Source of the DNA: an uncultured Mucilaginibacter sp.
GTDB taxonomy: Bacteria > Bacteroidota > Bacteroidia > Sphingobacteriales > Sphingobacteriaceae
Assembly (NCBI GenBank): GCA_913777515.1
Contig: CAJYSL010000443.1
Coordinates: 1 to 35,398 of the forward strand
Direction of reading: 5' to 3'
Length of the DNA stretch: 35,398 bases
The notes under the pieces were generated by a model. It worked only from the letters and a program-made list of their open reading frames with translations, searched no databases and was not told the origin of the DNA. Positions 10,431 to 27,464 of this stretch are shown here, one piece after another. The first letter of the stretch is position 1; each line of letters begins with the position of its first letter. The position numbers were made by a program, and so were the translations under genes.

Positions 10431-11099
10431 CTACCTATACTTTTTAAGCAATTCCGTAAAATTGTCGGTAGCATGCGGCTCGCCAATGGCCCTGAATTTC
10501 CACGAGCCATCCTTGCGGTACAGTTCGGCAAAGGTCATGGAGCACATGCCGTTAAAGGTGGCATCGCCCGAAAGGCTGTACCTTGCAATCTCCTTACCCC
10601 GTGCATCCACCGCGCGGATAAACGCGTTATCAACCATGCCGAAATGCTGATTATTGTGCCGCCCCTGGTAAATGCTCACCAAAAACAAAATACGCTGGTA
10701 CTGCTGCCCCAATGAGTTTAGCTTTACGATGATTTGCTCATCATCACCATCGCCTGCACCGGTACGGTTATCGCCCGTGAGCCAAATATGGCCCGACGGG
10801 TGCTGCATGGAATTGAAAAAGATGATGTCGCCGCCGTACAAATTTATCTCGCGCCCGTTGGGGGCCTGTGCCTTGCGGCCCAGGTTGGCCACCTTGCCGT
10901 TAGCATCCAGCAAAAAGGCAATGGCATCCAGGTCGTATTCTTCTTCTTGGCCGCCGCCAAAAAGCTTGCCTAAAAAGCCGGTGTTTTTTTGCCGTACGTC
11001 CCAGCCCAGGCCCAAGGTAACCGTGCTGAGGTCATACTCTTCGCCCTGGTCGTTTTTACGCAGGTCGATGGTTTGACCTTTAATTAAGTTGATTGCCAT
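10431..11099 (-). CDS. TerD-family protein
   Basis: MAINLIKGQTIDLRK...TVTLGLGWDV...EEYDLDAIAFLLDANGKV...SMQHPSGHIWLTGDNRTGAGDGDDEQIIVKL: TerD fold with Asp-rich metal-binding motifs. Confidence 0.93.
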   Translation of the reverse strand: MAINLIKGQTIDLRKNDQGEEYDLSTVTLGLGWDVRQKNTGFLGKLFGGGQEEEYDLDAIAFLLDANGKVANLGRKAQAPNGREINLYGGDIIFFNSMQHPSGHIWLTGDNRTGAGDGDDEQIIVKLNSLGQQYQRILFLVSIYQGRHNNQHFGMVDNAFIRAVDARGKEIARYSLSGDATFNGMCSMTFAELYRKDGSWKFRAIGEPHATDNFTELLKKYR

Positions 11100-11108
11100 A
11101 CGGTGCGG

Positions 11109-11684
11109 TTATTTAATGATTTGACCTTTAAAATATTTAGCTAAAAAGAAGGCCAGGTCTTCGCGGTAACCAATGCCCGAAGCTTCAAACTTCCAGCTGC
11201 CGTCGCGCTTGTAGAGCCTGCCAAACTCAATGCCGGTTTCGATCGAAAAATCTTCGCCCAGCTCGTATTTGGCAATTTCGCTGCCGTTAGAGTCGTCAAC
11301 AATGCGGATGTAGGAGTCGCGCACCTGACCGTAATTTTGCTTGCGCACCAGGGCGTCATGGATAGTTACGACAAATAAAATCTCGTTCACCCGCGGGTCA
11401 ACCAGCGACAAGTCAACGGTGATAATCTCGTCATCTCCGTGGGCGCTGTTGCCGCCGGTAGGGTCATCGCCCGAGTGGTGCAGGGCGCTGTCGGGGGAGT
11501 CGGTATTGCCATAAAAAATAAAAAACTCTTCGGCCGGGATAAGCCGGTTCTGGTCAATCATGATGGCCGAGGCATCCAGGTCAAAATCGTAACCCGTGCC
11601 CTCGTTAGGATTCCATCCCAAACCCACACTTATTTTTTGCAGACCAATATTGATACGCTGGCCCTTTTGCAGATTAATTGCCAT
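11109..11684 (-). CDS. TerD-family protein (tandem paralogue)
   Basis: MAINLQKGQRINIGLQKISVGLGWNPNEGTGYDFDLDASAIMIDQN...HHSGDDPTGGNSAHGDDEIITVDL: canonical TerD motifs. Confidence 0.95.
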   Translation of the reverse strand: MAINLQKGQRINIGLQKISVGLGWNPNEGTGYDFDLDASAIMIDQNRLIPAEEFFIFYGNTDSPDSALHHSGDDPTGGNSAHGDDEIITVDLSLVDPRVNEILFVVTIHDALVRKQNYGQVRDSYIRIVDDSNGSEIAKYELGEDFSIETGIEFGRLYKRDGSWKFEASGIGYREDLAFFLAKYFKGQIIK

Positions 11685-11801: not shown

Positions 11802-14672
11802 TTAACTTGCCATTCCGCTTATAAACGTATCTACAAAACTTAAAATTTTGGTTAATATCCGGTCGCCAATTTCTTTAGATTTCAGGATGCTTGGCCGGCC
11901 TTCTTTTCTTAGGTCCAAAATATCATTACGCAACGGTTCGCGTTCGGCAAACAGGTAGTTTTCTATCAGTTTTTCGGTTTTCTCTTCGGATAAGTTTTCG
12001 TCGTTTACTAATACTTTCAAGGCTTTATCCTGCTCTGCATTCCAGAATTTTTCAAACTCTTCCTGGATGTCTTCGGTATCTTCAATGTGAGGCAGGCTTT
12101 CTTTGATAAATTTTTCAATCAGTTCCCGTTTGCTTCTTAGCGATACTTCGTTATTTAAAAGATTAAAAACTTCTTGCTCAATATTTGCTTTCTCCTTTGT
12201 GTTTTGCTTTGCCTTAATGAGTAATTGCATAATGTAGGACACATTGATGGTGTCTCTCCTGATAAGCTCAAGCTCAAAATCAATATCGTTCAGGATAGAA
12301 GTTTTCTCGTTAGAGCCACCCGTAGACAGTTTGTCTTTTAAGTCGAGGTATTTACTGGTATAGGCTTCAAAAGATTGCTGTTCTATAGCTAAGTTACTCC
12401 AGGCGAACTCCGTATAATGGCTCATTTTTTTGTGTAAGCGCATCATCTCCCTAAAAGCTAATATAAATTCGAGTTTTTCCTCTTCGCTATATAAGTCATC
12501 TACATTGTTAAAGTGAGGTACAATGTCTAACAATTTATCAACCGCGTCGTTAAACTTGTCTACGTATACATGGTAAGGCTCCACGATGATGTCATCCACA
12601 ACGTCTTTGGCTTCCTTGTTACTAAAAAGCGCAATAGCTTCGTCCGTTTTGTCTTTTAAATTACGGAAGCATACAATATTGCCCTGCGTTTTATTTTTGT
12701 CTAAAATACGATTGGTACGGCTAAAAGCCTGTATTAATCCATGATACTGAAGATTTTTATCAACGTACAATGTATTTAGATATTTACTATCAAACCCGGT
12801 TAAAAACATGTTGGCTACCAGCAAAATGTCTGCCTCGTTGTTTTTGGATTTTTTGGCTACGGCGTTATAGTATGTATAAAAACCTTCGGAGTCTCTTACG
12901 TTTTCGGACATGCCATACATGGCGTTAAAATCGGCCACGTATCGTTCCAGCAGTTCGCGCCGGTGCGGGATGTAGCTGTTGCCGTAGGCAACGCTTGGCT
13001 CGGCCGCAATGTTATACTGCTGCATAATACTGCTTTCTAACTCATCCTCGTTGGCGGCGTAACTAAATATGGTGGTAACCTTTAAATTGTGCTCGCCATT
13101 AAGTTTTTTACGGTTAAACAATTCATAGTACTGAATAACCGCGTTAATGTCCTGTACGCACATCATGGCACAAAAACTACGGCTTTGCGTTTTTGAGTTG
13201 TGATGTTGAATAATGTAATCAACAATAGCCTCTTTGCGCTTCGGCGATTCGTAAACTTCGGCCTCGTTAATTTCTACAACTTTAAGATCGATGATATGCT
13301 CTTTTTGTTTAAATGTTTTGATGTATTCTACCGAAAACTTCAGCACGTTTTCATCCCCGATGGCATCGGTTATCACATATTTATGCAGGCAGTCTCCAAA
13401 TAAACTTTTGGTCGTCTTTTCACCATTTGAATTTTTTTCTAAAATAGGGGTGCCGGTGAAACCAAACAGCTGAATATTAGTAAAATAACCCACGATGTTT
13501 GCATGTGTATCGCCAAACTGCGAACGATGGCATTCATCAAAAATGAAAACCATGCGCAGGTCGGTTATGGCTTTCATTTTAAGCTGATTTCTTGCCGATA
13601 TGGCATTATTCAGCTTTTGAATAGTGGTGACAATAATCAGTACGTTAGGGTCCCTGAATTTGGCAATCAAATCGTCGGTGTTGGTAGCCGAGCTCACTGA
13701 GCCTTTGCTGAATTTTTCGTACTCCTGGTTAGTTTGGTAGTCCAGGTCTTTGCGGTCTACCACGAACACTACTTTTTTGATAGCTGGAATTTTTGATAAT
13801 ATCTGGCTGGCCTTAAAACTGGTCAAGGTTTTACCACTGCCCGTAGTGTGCCATATGTAACCGTTTTTTTTGATGTCGTACCCATTCAGCACTTCGTTGG
13901 CTGTCACTTTTTTGATGATGCTTTCTACCGCGTAATACTGGTAGGGGCGCATTACCATTAGTTTTTTATCGGTTTCGTTAAGTACAATGTACTTGCAAAT
14001 CATTTTGCTTACATGGCAAGGCTCCAAAAAGCTATCGGTAAAGCCGTTTAATATGTTATTGAGTGGTTTGTTGTTTTCGTCGGTCCAATGAAAAGTTTGC
14101 AGGAACTCTTGGGCATTGGTGCCGAAATTGCTGAAGTATTTGGTGTTTACACCGTTACTGATAATAAACAACTGCACAAAGTGAAAAAGCCCTTTACCGG
14201 CGCCAAAGCTGTGTTTTTTGTAACGGTTTATCTGATTAAAGGCTTCTTTAATTTCAAGGCTTACCCGTTTTAACTCAATCTGTACCAGAGGCAAGCCGTT
14301 TATTAAAAGGCTAACGTCGTAACGGTTGTCGTACTTGCCTTCCTGGCTAATCTGGTGGGTAACCTGATATTCGTTCTGACACCAGTGCTCCACATTTAAA
14401 AACTCGAAATACAGGTTATCGCCGTTATCGCGCAAAATGTGCTGACGTTCGCGCAGGGTTTTAGCCTTTTCAAAAACCGAGCCTTTGGTGAGAATATTCA
14501 TCACCTTATCAAACTCCGCATCGCTCAGCACTATGTTGTTATGCTTTTCGAGCTGAGTTTTCAGATTAGATATTAACGATTTTTCGTTAGGGATGACAAC
14601 GTATTTATAACCGAGTTTTTGTAGTTGGGCAATCAGCTTTTCCTCAAGTACCTGTTCAGATTGTTTGCTCAA
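11802..14672 (-). CDS. hsdR: Type I restriction endonuclease subunit R
   Basis: 956 aa; PLVQIELKR nuclease motif, IWHTTGSGKTLTSFKA Walker A, FIFDECHRSQFG (DEAD-like), FTGTP, LLVANMFLTGFDSKYLNTLYVDK, LIQAFSRTNR helicase motifs. Confidence 0.97.
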   Translation of the reverse strand: MSKQSEQVLEEKLIAQLQKLGYKYVVIPNEKSLISNLKTQLEKHNNIVLSDAEFDKVMNILTKGSVFEKAKTLRERQHILRDNGDNLYFEFLNVEHWCQNEYQVTHQISQEGKYDNRYDVSLLINGLPLVQIELKRVSLEIKEAFNQINRYKKHSFGAGKGLFHFVQLFIISNGVNTKYFSNFGTNAQEFLQTFHWTDENNKPLNNILNGFTDSFLEPCHVSKMICKYIVLNETDKKLMVMRPYQYYAVESIIKKVTANEVLNGYDIKKNGYIWHTTGSGKTLTSFKASQILSKIPAIKKVVFVVDRKDLDYQTNQEYEKFSKGSVSSATNTDDLIAKFRDPNVLIIVTTIQKLNNAISARNQLKMKAITDLRMVFIFDECHRSQFGDTHANIVGYFTNIQLFGFTGTPILEKNSNGEKTTKSLFGDCLHKYVITDAIGDENVLKFSVEYIKTFKQKEHIIDLKVVEINEAEVYESPKRKEAIVDYIIQHHNSKTQSRSFCAMMCVQDINAVIQYYELFNRKKLNGEHNLKVTTIFSYAANEDELESSIMQQYNIAAEPSVAYGNSYIPHRRELLERYVADFNAMYGMSENVRDSEGFYTYYNAVAKKSKNNEADILLVANMFLTGFDSKYLNTLYVDKNLQYHGLIQAFSRTNRILDKNKTQGNIVCFRNLKDKTDEAIALFSNKEAKDVVDDIIVEPYHVYVDKFNDAVDKLLDIVPHFNNVDDLYSEEEKLEFILAFREMMRLHKKMSHYTEFAWSNLAIEQQSFEAYTSKYLDLKDKLSTGGSNEKTSILNDIDFELELIRRDTINVSYIMQLLIKAKQNTKEKANIEQEVFNLLNNEVSLRSKRELIEKFIKESLPHIEDTEDIQEEFEKFWNAEQDKALKVLVNDENLSEEKTEKLIENYLFAEREPLRNDILDLRKEGRPSILKSKEIGDRILTKILSFVDTFISGMAS

Positions 14673-14765: not shown

Positions 14766-15692
14766 TTACCTCAGCGCTTTAAACATTTGCTCAATCGCCT
14801 TTTTTTTCTGCTCCATATTGGGGTGTACATACAGATTCAAAGTGGTGCTGATGTTGGAGTGGCCCAAAAGCACGCTAACGGTTTTGTAATCGCATTTACT
14901 TTCGATGCAACGGGTGGCAAAGCTATGCCTTAACCCATGAAACTTAAGCTCAGGCATTTTTAAATCTTTCATCAGGTTTTTATAATAGCTCCGATAGGTG
15001 CGTGGTTCGGTAGGTTTGGCATCGTTGGTTAGTACAAAGAAAGATGGGTTGACTATTTTTTTAAAGGGCTTTAAGATTCGCAGCAAATCCTTGCTCAGCG
15101 GAATTTCGCGGATGGAGTTTTTGGTTTTAGGTGTATCTAACAGCAGTTCCGTCCGGCGCTGACCGTCTTCAATGACGTAAATGCGTTGTATGGTACGGCG
15201 CACGTGTATTACGCCCCGGTCGGTATCTACATCTTCCCAAGTAAGGGCGCAAATTTCGCCGATGCGCATGCCGGCGCTCAGGCAAATATATACACCTAAA
15301 TTACGGAAGGTAAAATGCTCCTGAATGTAATTCATCACCTTTTTTTGGTCGGCGCGGCTCAGCACTTCCATGCTTTGACACTCGCGTACGGTCGGGAACT
15401 GGATGTCGAAAGGCGTGTAGCTAAATATCTTTTTTTTGGCGCCAAACTTTAAAATCATTTTAAGCACAATCAAAATGTCTTTAATAGTTTTTTGGCTCAG
15501 GCCCGACTCCAGTTTTTGCAGTACAAAGGTTTGTACATCGGCTTCTTCAATTTCGTGCTTGTGGCCAAAGGCCGGCAATAAATGATTTTCGGTGAGCAGG
15601 AGGTAGGCCGCATAGCTGGATTTTTTGACGTACTGCTTTTTGTCGGCTTTCCATAAGTCGGTAACATCGCTCAATAGTTTTTGGGGGTTCAT
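14766..15692 (-). CDS. Tyrosine recombinase/phage-integrase family; probable hsdS invertase
   Basis: Catalytic motifs LSAGMRIGEICALTWEDVD (Arg I), LKFHGLRHSFATRCIE (HxxR), VLLGHSNISTTLNLYVHPN (H...Y nucleophile). Located between hsdR and the inverted hsdS pair. Confidence 0.95.
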   Translation of the reverse strand: MNPQKLLSDVTDLWKADKKQYVKKSSYAAYLLLTENHLLPAFGHKHEIEEADVQTFVLQKLESGLSQKTIKDILIVLKMILKFGAKKKIFSYTPFDIQFPTVRECQSMEVLSRADQKKVMNYIQEHFTFRNLGVYICLSAGMRIGEICALTWEDVDTDRGVIHVRRTIQRIYVIEDGQRRTELLLDTPKTKNSIREIPLSKDLLRILKPFKKIVNPSFFVLTNDAKPTEPRTYRSYYKNLMKDLKMPELKFHGLRHSFATRCIESKCDYKTVSVLLGHSNISTTLNLYVHPNMEQKKKAIEQMFKALR

Positions 15693-15777
15693 GGTTGAAT
15701 TATATTATGGTGAGCAGTAAAGGAAAGGATTCTGTAAAACTTTTGGGATGGAAAATCTGCAAGATGGATTTACCATT

Positions 15778-15842
15778 AGGTTCAAAATAGAGTACCGAAA
15801 CTTAGATTTCCGGGGTTTGAGGGGGAATGGGAGGAGCGGAAG
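15778..15842 (+). repeat. Left arm of 65-bp inverted repeat (5' end of silent hsdS')
   Basis: AGGTTCAAAATAGAGTACCGA (21 nt) and TTTCCGGGGTTTGAGGGGGAATGGGA (26 nt) blocks are identical to the reverse complement of 18061-18125; 59/65 identical by eye. Confidence 0.95.
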
Positions 15843-16922
15843 TTGGGAGAGATATGTAAATTAATTACCAAAGGAACTACACCTGATAAATTCGTTGAAA
15901 GAGGTGTCGCTTTTATAAGAATAGAGAGTTTTGACGGTGATAAGATTAACAGAAGCAAATGCCTTTTTATAGACGACGAAGTACATCAAGGTAAGTTAAA
16001 ACGTTCTGTTTTGATGCATGGTGACATTCTTTTTGCTATCGCTGGGGCAACTGTTGGAAAGGTAAATATTGTGACTGAGGATTTGCTACCGGCAAATACC
16101 AATCAAGCATTAGCAATCATTCGCGTCAACGACAATGAAGATTATGTTTTCATTTATCAAGTTCTCAAATCTGAAAAAATGAGATCTTACATCAAGGATA
16201 GCATAGCCATTGGCGCGCAGCCGAATATGAACTTGGCTCAAATGGGTAATTTCTGTTTTTCCCGACCTCATATTAATGAACAAAAAAAAATAGCCTCATT
16301 TTTGACTACTATTGATAAAAGGATTCAAACCCAAAACAAAATAATTAATCAATTAAAAGCATTAATTAACAGTTTGAGCCTTCAATCTTTTGGAGATGAA
16401 ACACAGGGACATACTTTTTTGCCCTTAAAATCTCTTTGTTCTATAAAGAAGGGCGAGCAAATAAATGGCTCTCAATTATCTGTGAGCGGATTATATTACG
16501 TAATGAACGGGGGAATCACTCCGTCTGGCTACCACTCGAAATTTAACACGACCGCAGGTACAATATCCATAAGTGAAGGGGGTAATTCTTGTGGTTATGT
16601 TCAATACAACGAAACTGATTTTTGGAGTGGAGGACATTGTTATACGCTACTCAATATTAATAGCGCTGTTGAAAAAAAATATTTATACTATTATTTAAAG
16701 GCCTACGAATCACAGATAATGACTCTCAGAATTGGTTCGGGACTACCGAATATTCAAAAATCTTCCTTAGAAAAATTTGAGGTAAAGATTCTCCAGTTGG
16801 ATAAACAAAAAAAGATTATTTCACTATTAGACAATTTCTCAAAAAAGGTTTCGCTGGAAATAGAAATAAATGAAAAAAATCATCAGTTGAAAAAAATTCT
16901 TTTAATGGCTCTACTTATATAA
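15780..16922 (+). pseudogene. hsdS': Silent, promoterless and start-less hsdS' specificity cassette (type I S subunit; two target recognition domains)
   Basis: Frame from 15780 reads VQNRVPKLRFPGFEGEWEERKLGEICKLITKGTTPDKF..., preceded directly by TAG (15777-15779), with no ATG upstream. ORF track 15843 begins at an internal TTG. Conserved S-subunit spacer NEQKKIASFLTTIDKRIQTQNKIINQLKAL. Likely a functional reservoir rather than a decayed gene. Confidence 0.88.
16326..16345 (+). repeat. Left arm of 20-bp central-spacer inverted repeat
   Basis: CAAACCCAAAACAAAATAAT; perfect reverse complement at 17576-17595. Confidence 0.93.
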
Positions 16923-16923
16923 G
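16914..16923. repeat. Palindrome CTTATATAAG forming the shared 3' end of both hsdS frames
   Basis: Perfect 10-bp palindrome; both convergent frames end ...CTT ATA TAA (Leu-Ile-stop) inside it. Confidence 0.9.
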
Positions 16924-18153
16924 CATGTACTTCAACAAGAAATTCTTTTGATTTTTAAGTTTTTGAAAAATTTTATCTTCTATTGAAACTTTTTCCATTA
17001 ACGTTGAAAGCAATTTAGCAACTTCCAATTGTTCTCTAATTGATGGCAACAAAATTTCAATATTAAAAAAATCGCTTACTCCGACATTCAATAATCCATG
17101 ATTTCTGGCACCCTCATGAGCTATTTTTTCCAGTTCATCATTTTGGACTTGCGATTCGAAGTAGTGCTCCATGAATTCTTGGCAGACATCATCTTTAAAG
17201 CGAAAGCAAATGTAAAGCGTAGAAACGACACCTTTCTCGTATCGTTTGAGCCGCTTTATCGCTCCCATTGAGTATCCAGCTGAATAACTTTTATTATAAG
17301 CGAAATCATTTTTCTCTAACAAGTAGTAGCCTAAAAGATTTTTACCAGCAACTGATTTGTTAAAGAATTCCAGTTGACTGACTAATCCAAGTTGAGCAGA
17401 TATTGTTAGAACATTTTGCTCATTCTCAGTATTCTTTTTTATAATTCTTACTGCAATATCTTTTAACTTGCAATTTTCCCATTCCGAAAAACTGGTTCCT
17501 TCTGAATCCGTTAGAGTAATTTTTTGCCTAAATATTGCATCCCTGAGATTTCGGATTAAGGATTGATAACGTGATATTATTTTGTTTTGGGTTTGGATGC
17601 GGTTATTTAAAAGCGATAAAAAATTAGCAATCTTTTTTTGCTCATCATACTTCGGAAAACTTATTGGTATAGAGTTGCAATTGTATTTGTTCATATATGG
17701 AACAGCAGTTTTAGTCGCAATCTTTTCCATATAATCCTTCCTAGTTCCTAAACTGTGAAGTAAAAACTTGTAATCGATATTTTTAGGGACAAAAGCATGT
17801 AATTGCTGATTTATAACCATTCTTGTACCCGCTATTCCAGCTAAGCCGAGTTCACCAACGCAAGAAATTATAATTGAATTTTCAGGAACAATTTTGGACC
17901 CAACCCTCTTCGCCTCCTCTTCTGAAATTGACAGGCCTTTCTTTGAATATAAAATTAATTGGTTATGCTCGATGTCGGGAGTTGTTATCCAAGGGATTTC
18001 TCCATCAAATACAGATGGCTTGTTTCTGCCGGGTACTATATAATCACACAGTTCACCTACCTTCCGCTCATCCCATTCCCCCTCAAACCCCGGAAACCTC
18101 AACCTCGGTACTCTATTTTGAACCTTACCCATAACATCATCTTTTTCTGCCAT
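16915..18153 (-). CDS. hsdS: Type I restriction-modification specificity subunit S (currently expressed copy)
   Basis: MAEKDDVMGKVQNRVPRLRFPGFEGEWDERKVGELCDYIVPGRNKPS...; spacers YDEQKKIANFLSLLNNRIQTQNKIISRYQSLIRNLRD and REQLEVAKLLSTLMEKVSIEDK typical of HsdS. Downstream of hsdM on the same strand. Confidence 0.96.
   Translation of the reverse strand: MAEKDDVMGKVQNRVPRLRFPGFEGEWDERKVGELCDYIVPGRNKPSVFDGEIPWITTPDIEHNQLILYSKKGLSISEEEAKRVGSKIVPENSIIISCVGELGLAGIAGTRMVINQQLHAFVPKNIDYKFLLHSLGTRKDYMEKIATKTAVPYMNKYNCNSIPISFPKYDEQKKIANFLSLLNNRIQTQNKIISRYQSLIRNLRDAIFRQKITLTDSEGTSFSEWENCKLKDIAVRIIKKNTENEQNVLTISAQLGLVSQLEFFNKSVAGKNLLGYYLLEKNDFAYNKSYSAGYSMGAIKRLKRYEKGVVSTLYICFRFKDDVCQEFMEHYFESQVQNDELEKIAHEGARNHGLLNVGVSDFFNIEILLPSIREQLEVAKLLSTLMEKVSIEDKIFQKLKNQKNFLLKYMLI
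17576..17595 (-). repeat. Right arm of 20-bp central-spacer inverted repeat
   Basis: + strand ATTATTTTGTTTTGGGTTTG, exact reverse complement of 16326-16345. Confidence 0.93.
18061..18125 (-). repeat. Right arm of 65-bp inverted repeat (5' end of active hsdS)
   Basis: Reverse complement aligns ungapped to 15778-15842; encodes VQNRVPRLRFPGFEGEWDERK versus VQNRVPKLRFPGFEGEWEERK. Confidence 0.95.
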
Positions 18154-18194
18154 AATCGATTTTTTAAATTTCGTTAGTAATTACATTGAGGGTT

Positions 18195-19751
18195 TTAAAA
18201 AACAAGTCCAAGCTCTTTTAGGTATACGTCAATCTCTTTGTCTAACTCGGCTCTTTGGGCTTCTAGTGCCTTAATTTCGAGCATCACGGCCTGGATGTCT
18301 ATTTCGGCTTCTTCTTCAAAGGTGTCTACATAGCGCGGGATGTTCAGGTTGTAATCGTTATCGGCAATTTCTTTAAGGGTAGCCAGGTGGCTGTAGCTTT
18401 CGATAGGGGTGCGGTTGCGGTAGGTTTCAACAATTTTAGTAATGTGCTCTTCGCGCAGTATGTTTTGGTTTTTTACCTTGGTAAATTCCTTGCTGGCATC
18501 AATAAACAATACGTCGTTCGGCGTTTCGCGGCACTTCTTAAACACCAGGATACAGGTCGGGATGCTGGTGCCGTAAAATATGTTGGCTGGCAAACCTATC
18601 ACCGCATCCAGATAATTTTTTTGCTCAATTAAATACCGGCGTATGTGTAATTCGGCAGCCCCTCTAAACAACACGCCGTGCGGCAGTACTACGGCCATGG
18701 TGCCGTTTTCGGCCAGGTGGTAAATCATGTGTTGCACAAAGGCAAAGTCGGCCTTGCTGGCCGGCGCCAGCTTACCGTACTGGCTAAAGCGCTCGTCGGC
18801 CAAAAACAAAGGCTTAGCACTCCAGTTAGCCGAAAATGGCGGATTGGCCACAATGGCTTCGAAAGGCCTACTTTCCACATGCATGGGATGCTCAAGTGTA
18901 TCTTCCTGCTTAATATCAAATTTAAGATAATGCACGCCATGTAAAATCATGTTCATGCGGGCCAAATTATAGGTGGTGCGGTTCATTTCCTGACCATAAA
19001 AATTGGTCACGTCTTTTACCTCGCGGGCTACCCGCAGCAACAGCGATCCCGATCCGCAGGTTGGATCATACACCGAACGCAGCCGGTTTTTGCCGGTAGT
19101 AACAATTTTGGCTAAAATTTTTGACACCTCTTGCGGCGTATAAAATTCTCCGGCTTTTTTGCCGGCACCGCTGGCAAACTGGCCAATCAGGTACTCATAA
19201 GCATCGCCTAAAACATCCAGTTCGGTATGCTCCAGTTTAAAATCAATTTCGTCTAAATGCACCAGTACTTTCACAATGATGGCATTGCGGGCATCAACAC
19301 TTTTACCCAGTTTGGTGCTGTTTAAGTCCATGTCCTCAAAAAGGTTATCAAAATCCTCTTCGCTCCGGGTGCCCATGGTGCTCAGCTGTATATTGATCAG
19401 GATTTTTTGCAGGTCTTCTAAAATAAGCGTATTGGCGTTGCTACCGCGTCTGGCAATTTCGCTAAACAGTTCGGATGGTTTTAAAAAGTAACCCAGCATC
19501 TCGAGTGCATCTTCGCGAATAGCATTGATATACTCCTGACCGTCAGGCGTGTCTTCTTGAATGTCACGAAACTGCAGCTTATCCTCTTTTAAAATGGAGT
19601 TGGCATAAATTTCCATTTTTTCGGACAGATACTTATAGAATATAAATCCAAGAATGTAGTCTCTAAATTCGTCAGCATTCATTTTGCCACGCAGCGTGTT
19701 GGCTATATTCCAAAGTTGCTGCTCCAGTATTTTCTTTTGCTCTTCTGACAT
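18195..19751 (-). CDS. hsdM: Type I restriction-modification DNA methyltransferase subunit M
   Basis: GEFYTPQEVSKILAKI, SVYDPTCGSGSLLLRVA (SAM motif), FEAIVANPPFSANW (NPPF), N-terminal LWNIANTLRGKMNADEFRDYILGFIFYKYLSEK. Confidence 0.97.
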   Translation of the reverse strand: MSEEQKKILEQQLWNIANTLRGKMNADEFRDYILGFIFYKYLSEKMEIYANSILKEDKLQFRDIQEDTPDGQEYINAIREDALEMLGYFLKPSELFSEIARRGSNANTLILEDLQKILINIQLSTMGTRSEEDFDNLFEDMDLNSTKLGKSVDARNAIIVKVLVHLDEIDFKLEHTELDVLGDAYEYLIGQFASGAGKKAGEFYTPQEVSKILAKIVTTGKNRLRSVYDPTCGSGSLLLRVAREVKDVTNFYGQEMNRTTYNLARMNMILHGVHYLKFDIKQEDTLEHPMHVESRPFEAIVANPPFSANWSAKPLFLADERFSQYGKLAPASKADFAFVQHMIYHLAENGTMAVVLPHGVLFRGAAELHIRRYLIEQKNYLDAVIGLPANIFYGTSIPTCILVFKKCRETPNDVLFIDASKEFTKVKNQNILREEHITKIVETYRNRTPIESYSHLATLKEIADNDYNLNIPRYVDTFEEEAEIDIQAVMLEIKALEAQRAELDKEIDVYLKELGLVF

Positions 19752-20028
19752 TTCGGTATTGAATGATAGGTTTTGCCGCGAGCCTCACGCAGCCTTAAGT
19801 ATTTAAAATCCTCAATGATTTTAATAAGGGCTAAAGTAATTCTCTTTTTGGTAAGTGTGATAATGCTTTTTTGTAATTTTTAAGATGTACAAGTAAATAA
19901 TCAGTATCAGATAATCCTCCCCAAACCTCCACCCACATTAATTTTTCTTCATATCCGCGCCATTATCAAACCATTAGAATGATGTGGTAGTTAAGCCCTC
20001 TAAAACAAATAAACAAACAAAACAAGTT

Positions 20029-20628
20029 ATGGAAACTTCAGAAAAACAGGGCACAAGAGTGAGTGGAGTGGTTGAGAAATACCTGGCTAATAAACATGGC
20101 GATATTGATGCACTGGAGTTGAAAACAGATAAGGAGCACGTGAAAATTAATTTTCCGCCGCATACGGCCAAAACCATTATGCATAAAGCCGGGCAGGGCA
20201 GCCATGTAACCGTGACTTATCAAGCCGACGAGCCTAAACACGAGGGTAAAGATGATAAAAAACCAAAGTTAAAATTGGTGAGCGTAACCGATGCTCAAGG
20301 TAGCGACACCGAAGCCAACGACATTAAACCGCAAAAATCTGCTGCCGATGCTAGTGCAGAAACCATCAAGCTTGATAACTACGAATTACTGAAAGATAAA
20401 AAAGGCGAACTTATAGGTATTAAGTCGGGCAATAAACTGTTTCACATCCACAAAGAAGACCAACAGTTAGGTGATAAAATCAAAAACGGTGCGGTTTTAG
20501 AAATCACGGCAGTAAAGCGCGGGGATGAAGGTTTTGTGAACCAGCATCATGACGAGGTATATCACATTCAAAAAGTGATGGTAGACGGTCAGGAGTATCA
20601 GTCGCAACACAAAGCCAAACAAAAATAA
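20029..20628 (+). CDS. Hypothetical protein, possibly two related small-domain repeats
   Basis: ATG at 20029 (METSEKQGTRVSGVV...), charged, lysine-rich; ORF track start (GTG 19984) less likely. Confidence 0.7.
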   Translation: METSEKQGTRVSGVVEKYLANKHGDIDALELKTDKEHVKINFPPHTAKTIMHKAGQGSHVTVTYQADEPKHEGKDDKKPKLKLVSVTDAQGSDTEANDIKPQKSAADASAETIKLDNYELLKDKKGELIGIKSGNKLFHIHKEDQQLGDKIKNGAVLEITAVKRGDEGFVNQHHDEVYHIQKVMVDGQEYQSQHKAKQK

Positions 20629-26248: not shown

Positions 26249-27028
26249 TTACTTCTGTACAGTCGACTCACATTGTATCAACAGCCTGCTGATAAACTCG
26301 CTGTATTCATCGCGCATAGGTAGTTCCAATTCGGTATGCAGTATGCGTTTGTTTGTCAGCACCACTTCGTTGGTTTGAGCGTTGATGCCCTCTTTTTCAA
26401 TGATTTTCCAGTATACGCCTATGCCTCTTTTTTGCCAGGGGGGAAGGTCGTTAAAGTTAATGCCATATTGGTAAAGTAATTCATTTTTAGCAGCTATGCT
26501 CAGGCCATTGATTTTGGCCGCCGCGTCGCGTGCGCTAATGTTTTCTTTTCTGAGGCGCCAGTAGCAATGCGCGTTCAGCGCATTGCGGTGGGCGTCTTCG
26601 TTGCGCCACCTGAAATAATCTTCAACTAAGGCTTTGTTCGGAAGTTCGGACAAGCGGCAGTCAAACGCTGCAGGGTGCCCCAAAAGCGCCGAAAACTGAG
26701 CGCTGGCCTCACCAGCCAGTATCGACAGATATTTTCGCGTCTTTCTGCCGAATGCGTCTTCGTTGGGATGGAAAAGCAACGATATCTCGTCGCTTTCAGT
26801 ATAGCCGTAGATTACGTTAAAACCGCAGGTCATCAAATGCTTTACGGTGGCAACCATCAGATCACGAAAGCGCTCGTCAAACGGCGCCTCAAACGGGTGC
26901 ACTTCTTTAGTAAGCCTGGTAAAGCCTCGTCCGTCAATCCGGGCTACCAGGTACATGCCGGGTAAAACGTTGCGGTCTTGCGTGGTTTCATAAATCCGCA
27001 TTTTTTGGTCAAGGGTATCAAATTTCAT
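26249..27028 (-). CDS. tRNA(His) guanylyltransferase Thg1-family protein (bacterial Thg1-like)
   Basis: LVARIDGRGFTRLTKEVHPFEAPFDERFRDLM, CGFNVIYGYTESDEISLLFHPNEDAFGRKTRKYLSILAGEASAQFS, AAFDCRLSELPNKALVEDYFRWRNEDAHRNALNAHCYWRLR: Thg1 catalytic-domain text. Start ATG 27028 preferred over ORF-track start 27088. Confidence 0.93.
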   Translation of the reverse strand: MKFDTLDQKMRIYETTQDRNVLPGMYLVARIDGRGFTRLTKEVHPFEAPFDERFRDLMVATVKHLMTCGFNVIYGYTESDEISLLFHPNEDAFGRKTRKYLSILAGEASAQFSALLGHPAAFDCRLSELPNKALVEDYFRWRNEDAHRNALNAHCYWRLRKENISARDAAAKINGLSIAAKNELLYQYGINFNDLPPWQKRGIGVYWKIIEKEGINAQTNEVVLTNKRILHTELELPMRDEYSEFISRLLIQCESTVQK

Positions 27029-27464
27029 CCAGCCATTGTTTGATGGTAAATGTATTATTTTCAGCCGTAACGTAATACAGTTCATCAAAGCCTTCAGTAA
27101 AAGAGGGCGGTACTAAACGCTTGTACGTTCCCCTAATACCAATTTCGGGGATGTTTTCCTTACCGGTGCGGTGCCGGTTACGGGCCAAAGCATCGTCAAG
27201 TTTTGATTGAAAATAATAGCCGATAACTTTAAACCGGTTGACTTTGGCAATTGTTATGTAAGTTGCCCGCTCTTCTGGCGATGGGTTAGTATTATCTACA
27301 ACAAAAGCTTGCGAGGTTTGAATGCAGGTGTCAATAAACCGGCGTTCCTTGTTGCGGGTGTTAAGCTGGTCAAGCGATATCCGCATGTGCGTTTTAAAAA
27401 ACTGATCTTTGTAAAAAGTAGTTTTTCCGGTGGCCTGAATACCGCAAAATATTACCGCTTCCAT
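27018..27464 (-). CDS. Small P-loop (AAA_33/polynucleotide-kinase-like) kinase
   Basis: MEAVIFCGIQATGKTTFYKDQF (GxxxxGKT Walker A), FVVDNTNPSPEERATYI, LARNRHRTGKENIPE; overlaps the Thg1-like start by 11 nt. Confidence 0.85.
   Translation of the reverse strand: MEAVIFCGIQATGKTTFYKDQFFKTHMRISLDQLNTRNKERRFIDTCIQTSQAFVVDNTNPSPEERATYITIAKVNRFKVIGYYFQSKLDDALARNRHRTGKENIPEIGIRGTYKRLVPPSFTEGFDELYYVTAENNTFTIKQWLDEI

What the first reader, a model, noticed from the sequence alone, without database searches (positions are those of the whole stretch)
15778..18125. Two nested inverted-repeat pairs predict four HsdS alleles
The outer pair (65 bp, 59/65) flanks both recognition domains. The inner pair (CAAACCCAAAACAAAATAAT and its exact complement) lies in the spacer between TRD1 and TRD2. 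Recombination at the outer pair would exchange the whole two-TRD content, and at the inner pair would exchange only TRD2, giving 2x2 combinations. The outer repeat holds two perfect blocks (21 and 26 bp) separated by an 8-nt divergent block with 5 mismatches, which could record past crossover boundaries.
Basis: partly seen in the sequence, partly recalled or inferred. Interest (0 to 1): 0.7.

Follow-up and report, generated by a model that had tools for sequence, protein, structure and literature searches.

The report
Four-way invertible restriction-enzyme specificity gene
This stretch of a soil-type bacterium's genome is a gene shuffler: two nested pairs of mirror-image DNA sites next to a recombinase gene should let the cell swap the halves of its restriction enzyme's DNA-reading subunit into four versions, a kind of switch already known in other bacteria, including Bacteroides.

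Summary
Outer arms 15778-15842/18061-18125 match at 59/65, with 21- and 26-bp perfect blocks. Inner arms 16326-16345/17576-17595 match at 20/20. They lie in a complete type I R-M locus (hsdR, tyrosine recombinase, silent hsdS', hsdS, hsdM) of a Mucilaginibacter MAG. Simulated inversions give four intact HsdS proteins (412, 384, 390, 418 aa).

About 80 Bacteroidota loci with this recombinase (65-92% identity) share the layout. At the inner site a 7-nt core (CAAAATA here) is identical between arms in 40/40 loci although it varies between loci. Outer arms agree over a sharply bounded ~17-nt core. Short-read contigs end preferentially at both sites. Related loci show the inner segment in both orientations, and TRD1 exchanged with TRD2 unchanged. 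Both products therefore exist in the family; switching in this organism was not seen.

One correction: the crossover most likely lies in the 21-bp block, so the 8-nt divergent block travels with TRD1 and records no boundary.

This is a new member of a known kind (four-way inverting hsdS systems; Bacteroides fragilis hsdS shufflon, whose published repeat contains nearly this inner core). Open: outer and inner cores do not resemble each other, yet one recombinase gene is present.

The parts
11802..14672 (-). hsdR, restriction subunit, 956 aa
   Evidence: PF04313, PF18766, PF12008; TIGR00348 above cut-off
14766..15692 (-). tyrosine recombinase, 308 aa, intact, with R...K...HxxR...H...Y signature residues; the presumed invertase
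   Evidence: PF00589 E=6.6e-29, PF14659; translation; residues identified by eye from knowledge of the family; 65-92% identical homologues in about 80 Bacteroidota loci
15778..15842 (+). outer inverted-repeat arm on the silent side (59/65 against 18061-18125)
18061..18125 (-). outer inverted-repeat arm at the start of the expressed hsdS
15780..15796 (+). predicted outer crossover region GTTCAAAATAGAGTACC (inside the 21-bp perfect block); mirror copy 18107-18123
   Evidence: register with 34 related loci, sharp left edge of arm identity; shared variant with L062/G496
15799..15806 (+). 8-nt divergent block (5 mismatches; mirror 18097-18104); predicted to lie downstream of the crossover and to travel with TRD1
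15780..16922 (+). silent hsdS' cassette: TRD1sil and TRD2sil; open from the outer arm, in-frame stop TAG at 15777-15779 just before it, no start codon
   Evidence: two PF01420 stretches
16326..16345 (+). inner inverted-repeat arm in the spacer of the silent copy; predicted 7-nt crossover CAAAATA at 16337-16343
17576..17595 (-). inner inverted-repeat arm in the spacer of the expressed hsdS; predicted 7-nt crossover at 17578-17584
16915..18153 (-). expressed hsdS, 412 aa (TRD1act + TRD2act); its 3' end overlaps that of hsdS' by 8 bp
18195..19751 (-). hsdM, methyltransferase subunit, 518 aa
   Evidence: PF02384, PF12161; TIGR00497 above cut-off

Best explanation
[quoted passage not shown] The adjacent tyrosine recombinase inverts DNA between the two outer sites, swapping TRD1 and TRD2 together, or between the two inner sites, swapping TRD2 only. 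The one copy that has a start codon, next to hsdM, therefore carries one of 2x2 TRD combinations. Each would give a different methylation and restriction specificity. Shown: anatomy, intact genes, four in-frame alleles, family-wide conservation of both cores, and both rearrangement products between related loci. Inferred: that this recombinase does it, that switching occurs in this organism, and the effect on DNA methylation.
For: Four intact alleles in silico, 412/384/390/418 aa. The silent copy has no start and a stop just before the repeat. The same layout occurs in dozens of loci beside recombinase homologues, outer sites ~75 and ~2400 nt and inner sites ~600 and ~1900 nt upstream, against 8 inner-like and 2 outer-like matches in 1.28 Mb of flanking strand-bases. 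The inner 7-mer is identical between arms in 40/40 loci (mean 17.6 if partners are shuffled) while the base just before it agrees in only 75%; the outer 7-mer agrees in 32/34 (shuffled mean 9.8, max 18) with a left edge falling from 100% to 59% in one base. Further loci from the window's own genus and family and one more distant relative: outer 7/7, inner 8/8. Fixed silent codons in the inner core (CAA 63/63, AAA 63/63, ATA 59/63); the peptide motif is found only in recombinase-bearing loci of a control set. Contig ends: 18 of 34 at the outer site and 8 at the inner site on the hsdS side. Inner segment inverted between L032 and L039, and between L079 and L088, with recombinase and hsdM collinear; TRD1 swapped with TRD2 unchanged between L065 and L038.
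Against: Only one arrangement exists in this MAG, and no two genomes of one species were available. The outer core here deviates from the family consensus (GTTCAAAATAGAGTACC against GTTCCNAATTTGAGATTTCC), and its right half is displaced by a 12-nt insertion, so the outer pair could be weakened. Outer and inner core profiles do not align better than chance, so recognition of both by one enzyme is not explained. In pneumococcus one report found inversion without any known site-specific recombinase (PMC6620402).
Confidence: 0.86

Rival explanations
1. Two-way switch only: the inner pair is active, but the outer pair has lost its function in this lineage because its core has drifted (insertion and divergent block).
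For: The window's outer core differs from the family consensus, and the part corresponding to TTGAGATTTCC falls in the divergent block. Its inner core is a perfect consensus match in one arm and one mismatch off in the other.
Against: The 21-bp block at the expected left edge is perfect between arms. L062/G496 (Sphingobacterium) carries the same AAATAGA variant with arms identical 66/66, so the variant appears to be maintained.
Confidence: 0.2
2. The repeats are only conserved protein motifs (LRFPGFEGEW at the start of a TRD; QTQNKII in the coiled coil), not recombination sites.
For: Both repeats encode conserved HsdS segments.
Against: Silent codon positions are fixed at the inner core. Cores co-vary between arms within a locus. 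HsdS genes of the genus without the recombinase lack the motif. Contig breaks and inversions sit at the sites.
Confidence: 0.03
3. The rearrangements come from general homologous (RecA) recombination across the repeats, and the recombinase is a bystander.
For: The outer repeat is 65-80 bp; in pneumococcus part of the hsdS inversion is recombinase-independent (PMC7096588; PMC6620402).
Against: A 20-bp inner repeat is short for RecA (general knowledge). Arm identity has a one-base-sharp left edge and a strict 7-nt core, as expected of a tyrosine recombinase. The recombinase is next to the site in all loci because loci were found through it, so its co-occurrence is not independent evidence.
Confidence: 0.07

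Closest known systems
Bacteroides fragilis hsdS shufflon (NCTC 9343 BF1839-1842, shufflon BB; 638R BF638R_1146-1149), Patrick et al. 2010, PMC3090145
   Same: Same phylum; type I R-M locus with inverted repeats in hsdS and an adjacent tyrosine integrase. Its published repeat ...GCTACCCAAAACAAAATCAT contains the inner core found here with one difference (ACCCAAAACAAAATCAT against ACCCAAAACAAAATAAT).
   Different: The B. fragilis locus has four sets of repeats and a stated eight polypeptide combinations; here there are two pairs and four. Its genome was not compared here directly.
Four-way inverting type I R-M systems of the REBASE survey (Atack et al. 2020, PMC7394358; Streptococcus suis type)
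   Same: Figure 1 of that paper is this architecture: one repeat pair before the 5' TRD, one between the TRDs, four alleles.
   Different: Different phylum and sequences. The survey required repeats of at least 20 bp with 100% identity.
Pneumococcal cod/SpnD39III locus with PsrA (PMC7096588, PMC4190663)
   Same: Tyrosine recombinase next to hsdS genes inverts segments between repeats of very different length, including a 15-bp pair.
   Different: Three repeat pairs and six alleles. PsrA acts on IR2 and IR3 through IR1-like sequences, whereas outer and inner cores here show no detectable similarity.

Membership tests
Inverting (phase-variable) type I R-M system | Complete hsdR, hsdM, hsdS | tested here: met
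   Pfam and NCBIfam matches, open frames
Inverting (phase-variable) type I R-M system | Second, silent hsdS copy with different TRDs in opposite orientation | tested here: met
   15780-16922 on +, no start; TRD1 pair 22% identical, TRD2 pair not alignable
Inverting (phase-variable) type I R-M system | Inverted repeats before TRD1 and between the TRDs, giving in-frame exchanges | tested here: met
Inverting (phase-variable) type I R-M system | Observed inversion within one strain or species | tested here: inconclusive
   Only one arrangement in this draft MAG, but a consensus assembly cannot show mixed states; inversions seen only between related loci of different species. Reads were not available
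Inverting (phase-variable) type I R-M system | Changed methylation motifs between states | not testable with these tools
   needs SMRT or nanopore methylome data
Bacteroidota hsdS shufflon with adjacent tyrosine integrase (B. fragilis BB type) | Tyrosine integrase next to hsdS cassettes | tested here: met
Bacteroidota hsdS shufflon with adjacent tyrosine integrase (B. fragilis BB type) | Inner repeat with core ACCCAAAACAAAATnAT | tested here: met
   window; published repeat in PMC3090145
Bacteroidota hsdS shufflon with adjacent tyrosine integrase (B. fragilis BB type) | Integrase orthologous to the B. fragilis one | not tested
   the B. fragilis proteins were not fetched; 60-61% identical homologues in Bacteroides/Phocaeicola plasmids were seen
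PsrA/cod-type locus | Recombination sites share a common core | tested here: not met
   outer and inner profiles align no better than column-shuffled ones, 241 of 400 shuffles as good or better

The most novel reading that the evidence does not exclude
A single tyrosine recombinase family, spread over the Bacteroidota, acts on two unrelated core sequences buried in the coding sequence of the same gene (GTTCCNAATTTGAGATTTCC at the start, ACCCAAAACAAAATAATT in the spacer). Each allows free variation of the crossover between loci but demands identity within a locus, so the enzyme would have dual specificity or a partner protein.
Probability: 0.4. Interest if true: 0.5.

Novelty: new member of a known kind. 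Interest (0 to 1): 0.36.

Why it matters
It shows that four-way hsdS switching with one conserved recombinase is a widespread trait of Bacteroidota, including soil genera, not only of gut Bacteroides and streptococci. The comparison gives base-level predictions of two crossover cores that can be tested directly. Genomes of this kind are also systematically broken or frozen at these sites by short-read assembly, so the recorded HsdS allele is only one of several.

Tried and rejected
I first placed the family outer motif on the LRFPGF stretch of the window, which made the arms differ at 4 of 7 core positions and suggested a dead outer site. Re-registering with L062 showed that the cognate GTTC start is about 16 nt upstream, in the 21-bp block, so that reading was dropped as the main one and kept as a rival.

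A shared motif between outer and inner sites was sought by profile alignment and not found. A search of the own genome for other junctions gave none. Plasmid records gave only ~60% recombinase homologues and no multi-isolate series. The window's own TRDs were looked for in opposite phase: TRD2act is active in L147, L038, L065 and L067 but silent in L045; TRD1act was found once, active, in L154; TRD1sil has no close match. The outer variant GGTTCMAAATAGAG was found at such a site only in the window and in G496/L062. One simulated double inversion used inner coordinates that had shifted after the outer inversion (406 aa line); the valid fourth allele is the 418-aa one, made by inverting the inner pair first.

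Full report
WHAT IS THERE. The finding's coordinates and counts are right. The outer arms are 15778-15842 and 18061-18125 (21 perfect, 8 with 5 mismatches, 26 perfect, 1 mismatch, 9 matches; 59/65), and the inner arms are 16326-16345 and 17576-17595 (20/20). In 300 dinucleotide shuffles of 15700-18200 the longest exact inverted repeat was 17, against 26 and 20 here. The surroundings are a complete type I restriction-modification locus. hsdR is at 11802-14672(-), a tyrosine recombinase at 14766-15692(-), a silent hsdS' at 15780-16922(+), hsdS at 16915-18153(-) and hsdM at 18195-19751(-). The silent copy is open from the outer arm but has a stop codon (TAG 15777-15779) immediately before it and no start. 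The window is contig C443 of an 84%-complete draft genome of 473 contigs.

FOUR ALLELES. Inverting in silico at the inner core, the outer core, or both gives uninterrupted HsdS proteins from the same ATG: 412 aa (TRD1act-TRD2act, as assembled), 384 (TRD1act-TRD2sil), 390 (TRD1sil-TRD2sil) and 418 (TRD1sil-TRD2act). The alternative TRDs are very different (TRD1 pair 22% identical; TRD2 pair not alignable), so four specificities are expected.

THE FAMILY. A genome scan with the recombinase found 207 candidate relatives, of which 80 loci (65-92% identity) were kept, nearly all from Bacteroidota. Where the contig is long enough, most show the same plan: outer sites about 75 and 2400 nt and inner sites about 600 and 1900 nt upstream of the recombinase. 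Some have longer versions, with an extra cassette and outer arms 3.4-4.7 kb apart. Matches to the two cores elsewhere in the same loci are rare (8 and 2 in 1.28 Mb of strand-bases at up to 3 mismatches).

BASE-LEVEL SITES. I aligned the two arms of each locus. At the inner site, seven positions (CAAAATA in the commonest form) are identical between arms in 40 of 40 loci, although other loci use GAAAATA, TAAAATC, GCAAATT, GAAAGTG, CAGGATA and so on. With partners shuffled between loci the mean is 17.6. The base just before the seven agrees in only 75%. This is the pattern expected of a tyrosine recombinase crossover region, where the two sites must match each other but not a fixed sequence. At the outer site the arms agree from position -1 to about 15 of GTTCCNAATTTGAGATTTCC (the first G is position -1), and one base further left agreement drops to 59%; the 7-mer NAATTTG agrees in 32 of 34 (shuffled mean 9.8, maximum 18). 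Loci fetched afterwards, mostly from the window's genus and family, gave 7/7 (outer) and 8/8 (inner). Caveat: partner arms were chosen as the best match on the opposite strand, which favours agreement somewhat; the contrast between neighbouring positions is not affected by that. Three inner-site pairs with many mismatches were set aside or counted as weak (L072 excluded at 6 core mismatches).

NOT JUST CONSERVED PROTEIN. In the inner core the silent positions are fixed across the phylum: Gln is CAA in 63/63, Lys is AAA in 63/63, and Ile is ATA in 59/63 arms. Among 30 loci picked from the genus by the HsdS family alone, the motif appears in L116, L128 and L134, which come from genomes that carry this recombinase; the one other match (L120, 9 mismatches, stop codons around it) is chance.

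EVIDENCE OF MOVEMENT. First, contig ends: of 79 loci, 34 contigs end within 4 kb on the hsdS side against 10 on the other side. Of the 34, 18 end at the outer site and 8 at the inner site (binomial P about 1e-16 and 5e-7 under uniform ends). In G004 a 650-kb contig begins inside the distal inner site. Breaks can arise from short repeats alone, so this is supportive, not conclusive. Second, inversions between relatives with recombinase and hsdM collinear. L032 and L039 have the inner segment in opposite orientation at 86% identity over 1.4 kb, with ends at the inner sites; so do L079 and L088 at 80.5%. Between L065 and L038 the active TRD1 of one is the silent TRD1 of the other while TRD2 keeps its phase, the net result of an outer plus an inner inversion. 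L042 and L043, with an extra cassette and 96% identity, differ as two successive inner-type inversions would make them (the two-step reading is mine). So both junction types have been used in the family, across species. No same-species pair was available.

THE 8-NT BLOCK. In the window the GTTC start that marks the left edge in the family is in the 21-bp block: GTTCAAAATAGAGTACC. The same AAATAGA form occurs in L062/G496, whose outer arms are identical over 66 nt. The window HsdS starts VQNR-VPRLRFPGF where relatives have VPNLRFPGF, a 12-nt insertion in the middle of the usual core. The 8-nt divergent block therefore lies on the inverting side and should travel with TRD1; it does not mark where crossovers resolve. 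Because the right half of the usual core is displaced, reduced outer switching remains possible (rival 1).

COMPARED WITH WHAT IS KNOWN. The four-allele arrangement is that of figure 1 of Atack et al. 2020 (PMC7394358). In B. fragilis an hsdS shufflon with an adjacent tyrosine integrase was described, with the repeat CTTATTGATGAACGTATCGCTACCCAAAACAAAATCAT (PMC3090145), which contains this inner core with one change; it was the only held paper containing both the string CCCAAAACAAAAT and hsdS. High prevalence of recombination between hsdS genes in a survey of invertible sites is reported in PMC5903667. Hence: a new member of a known kind. What seems not to have been set out before in the papers I could search is the base-level definition of the two cores across the phylum and the lack of similarity between them, which leaves open how one enzyme would serve both.

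Noticed in passing
L058/L155 (Mucilaginibacter oryzae, G027): Degenerate relative: the recombinase frame is interrupted (1 TAA) and the start of hsdS abuts it; the whole region between the two outer sites is missing.
   Followed up: partly
L068 (Chryseobacterium gilvum): Outer and inner arms are joined by a 503-bp perfect inverted repeat: both TRD1 copies are identical, so this locus can make only two alleles.
   Followed up: partly
L037, L042, L043, L057, L079, L082, L106: Larger versions with an extra cassette between the inner sites (inner arms 2.3-3.6 kb apart), which could make more than four alleles.
   Followed up: partly
L101, L105, L082: Homologues of the window's TRD2act sit close to the outer site, in the TRD1 position, suggesting TRDs also move between the two slots of hsdS over longer times.
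   Followed up: no
L082 and L084 (Dysgonomonas sp. 216): Two apparently identical copies of the switching region on two contigs of one genome.
   Followed up: no
window 26249-27464 (-): Thg1-like tRNA-His guanylyltransferase gene overlapping an AAA_33 (kinase-like) gene, unusual for a bacterium; possible RNA-repair pair.
   Followed up: no
window 10431-11684 (-): Two adjacent TerD-domain genes downstream of the hsd operon.
   Followed up: no
window 19530-19564 and 20564-20598: A 35-nt, 80% inverted repeat between hsdM and the ORF 19984-20628, which has no family match.
   Followed up: no
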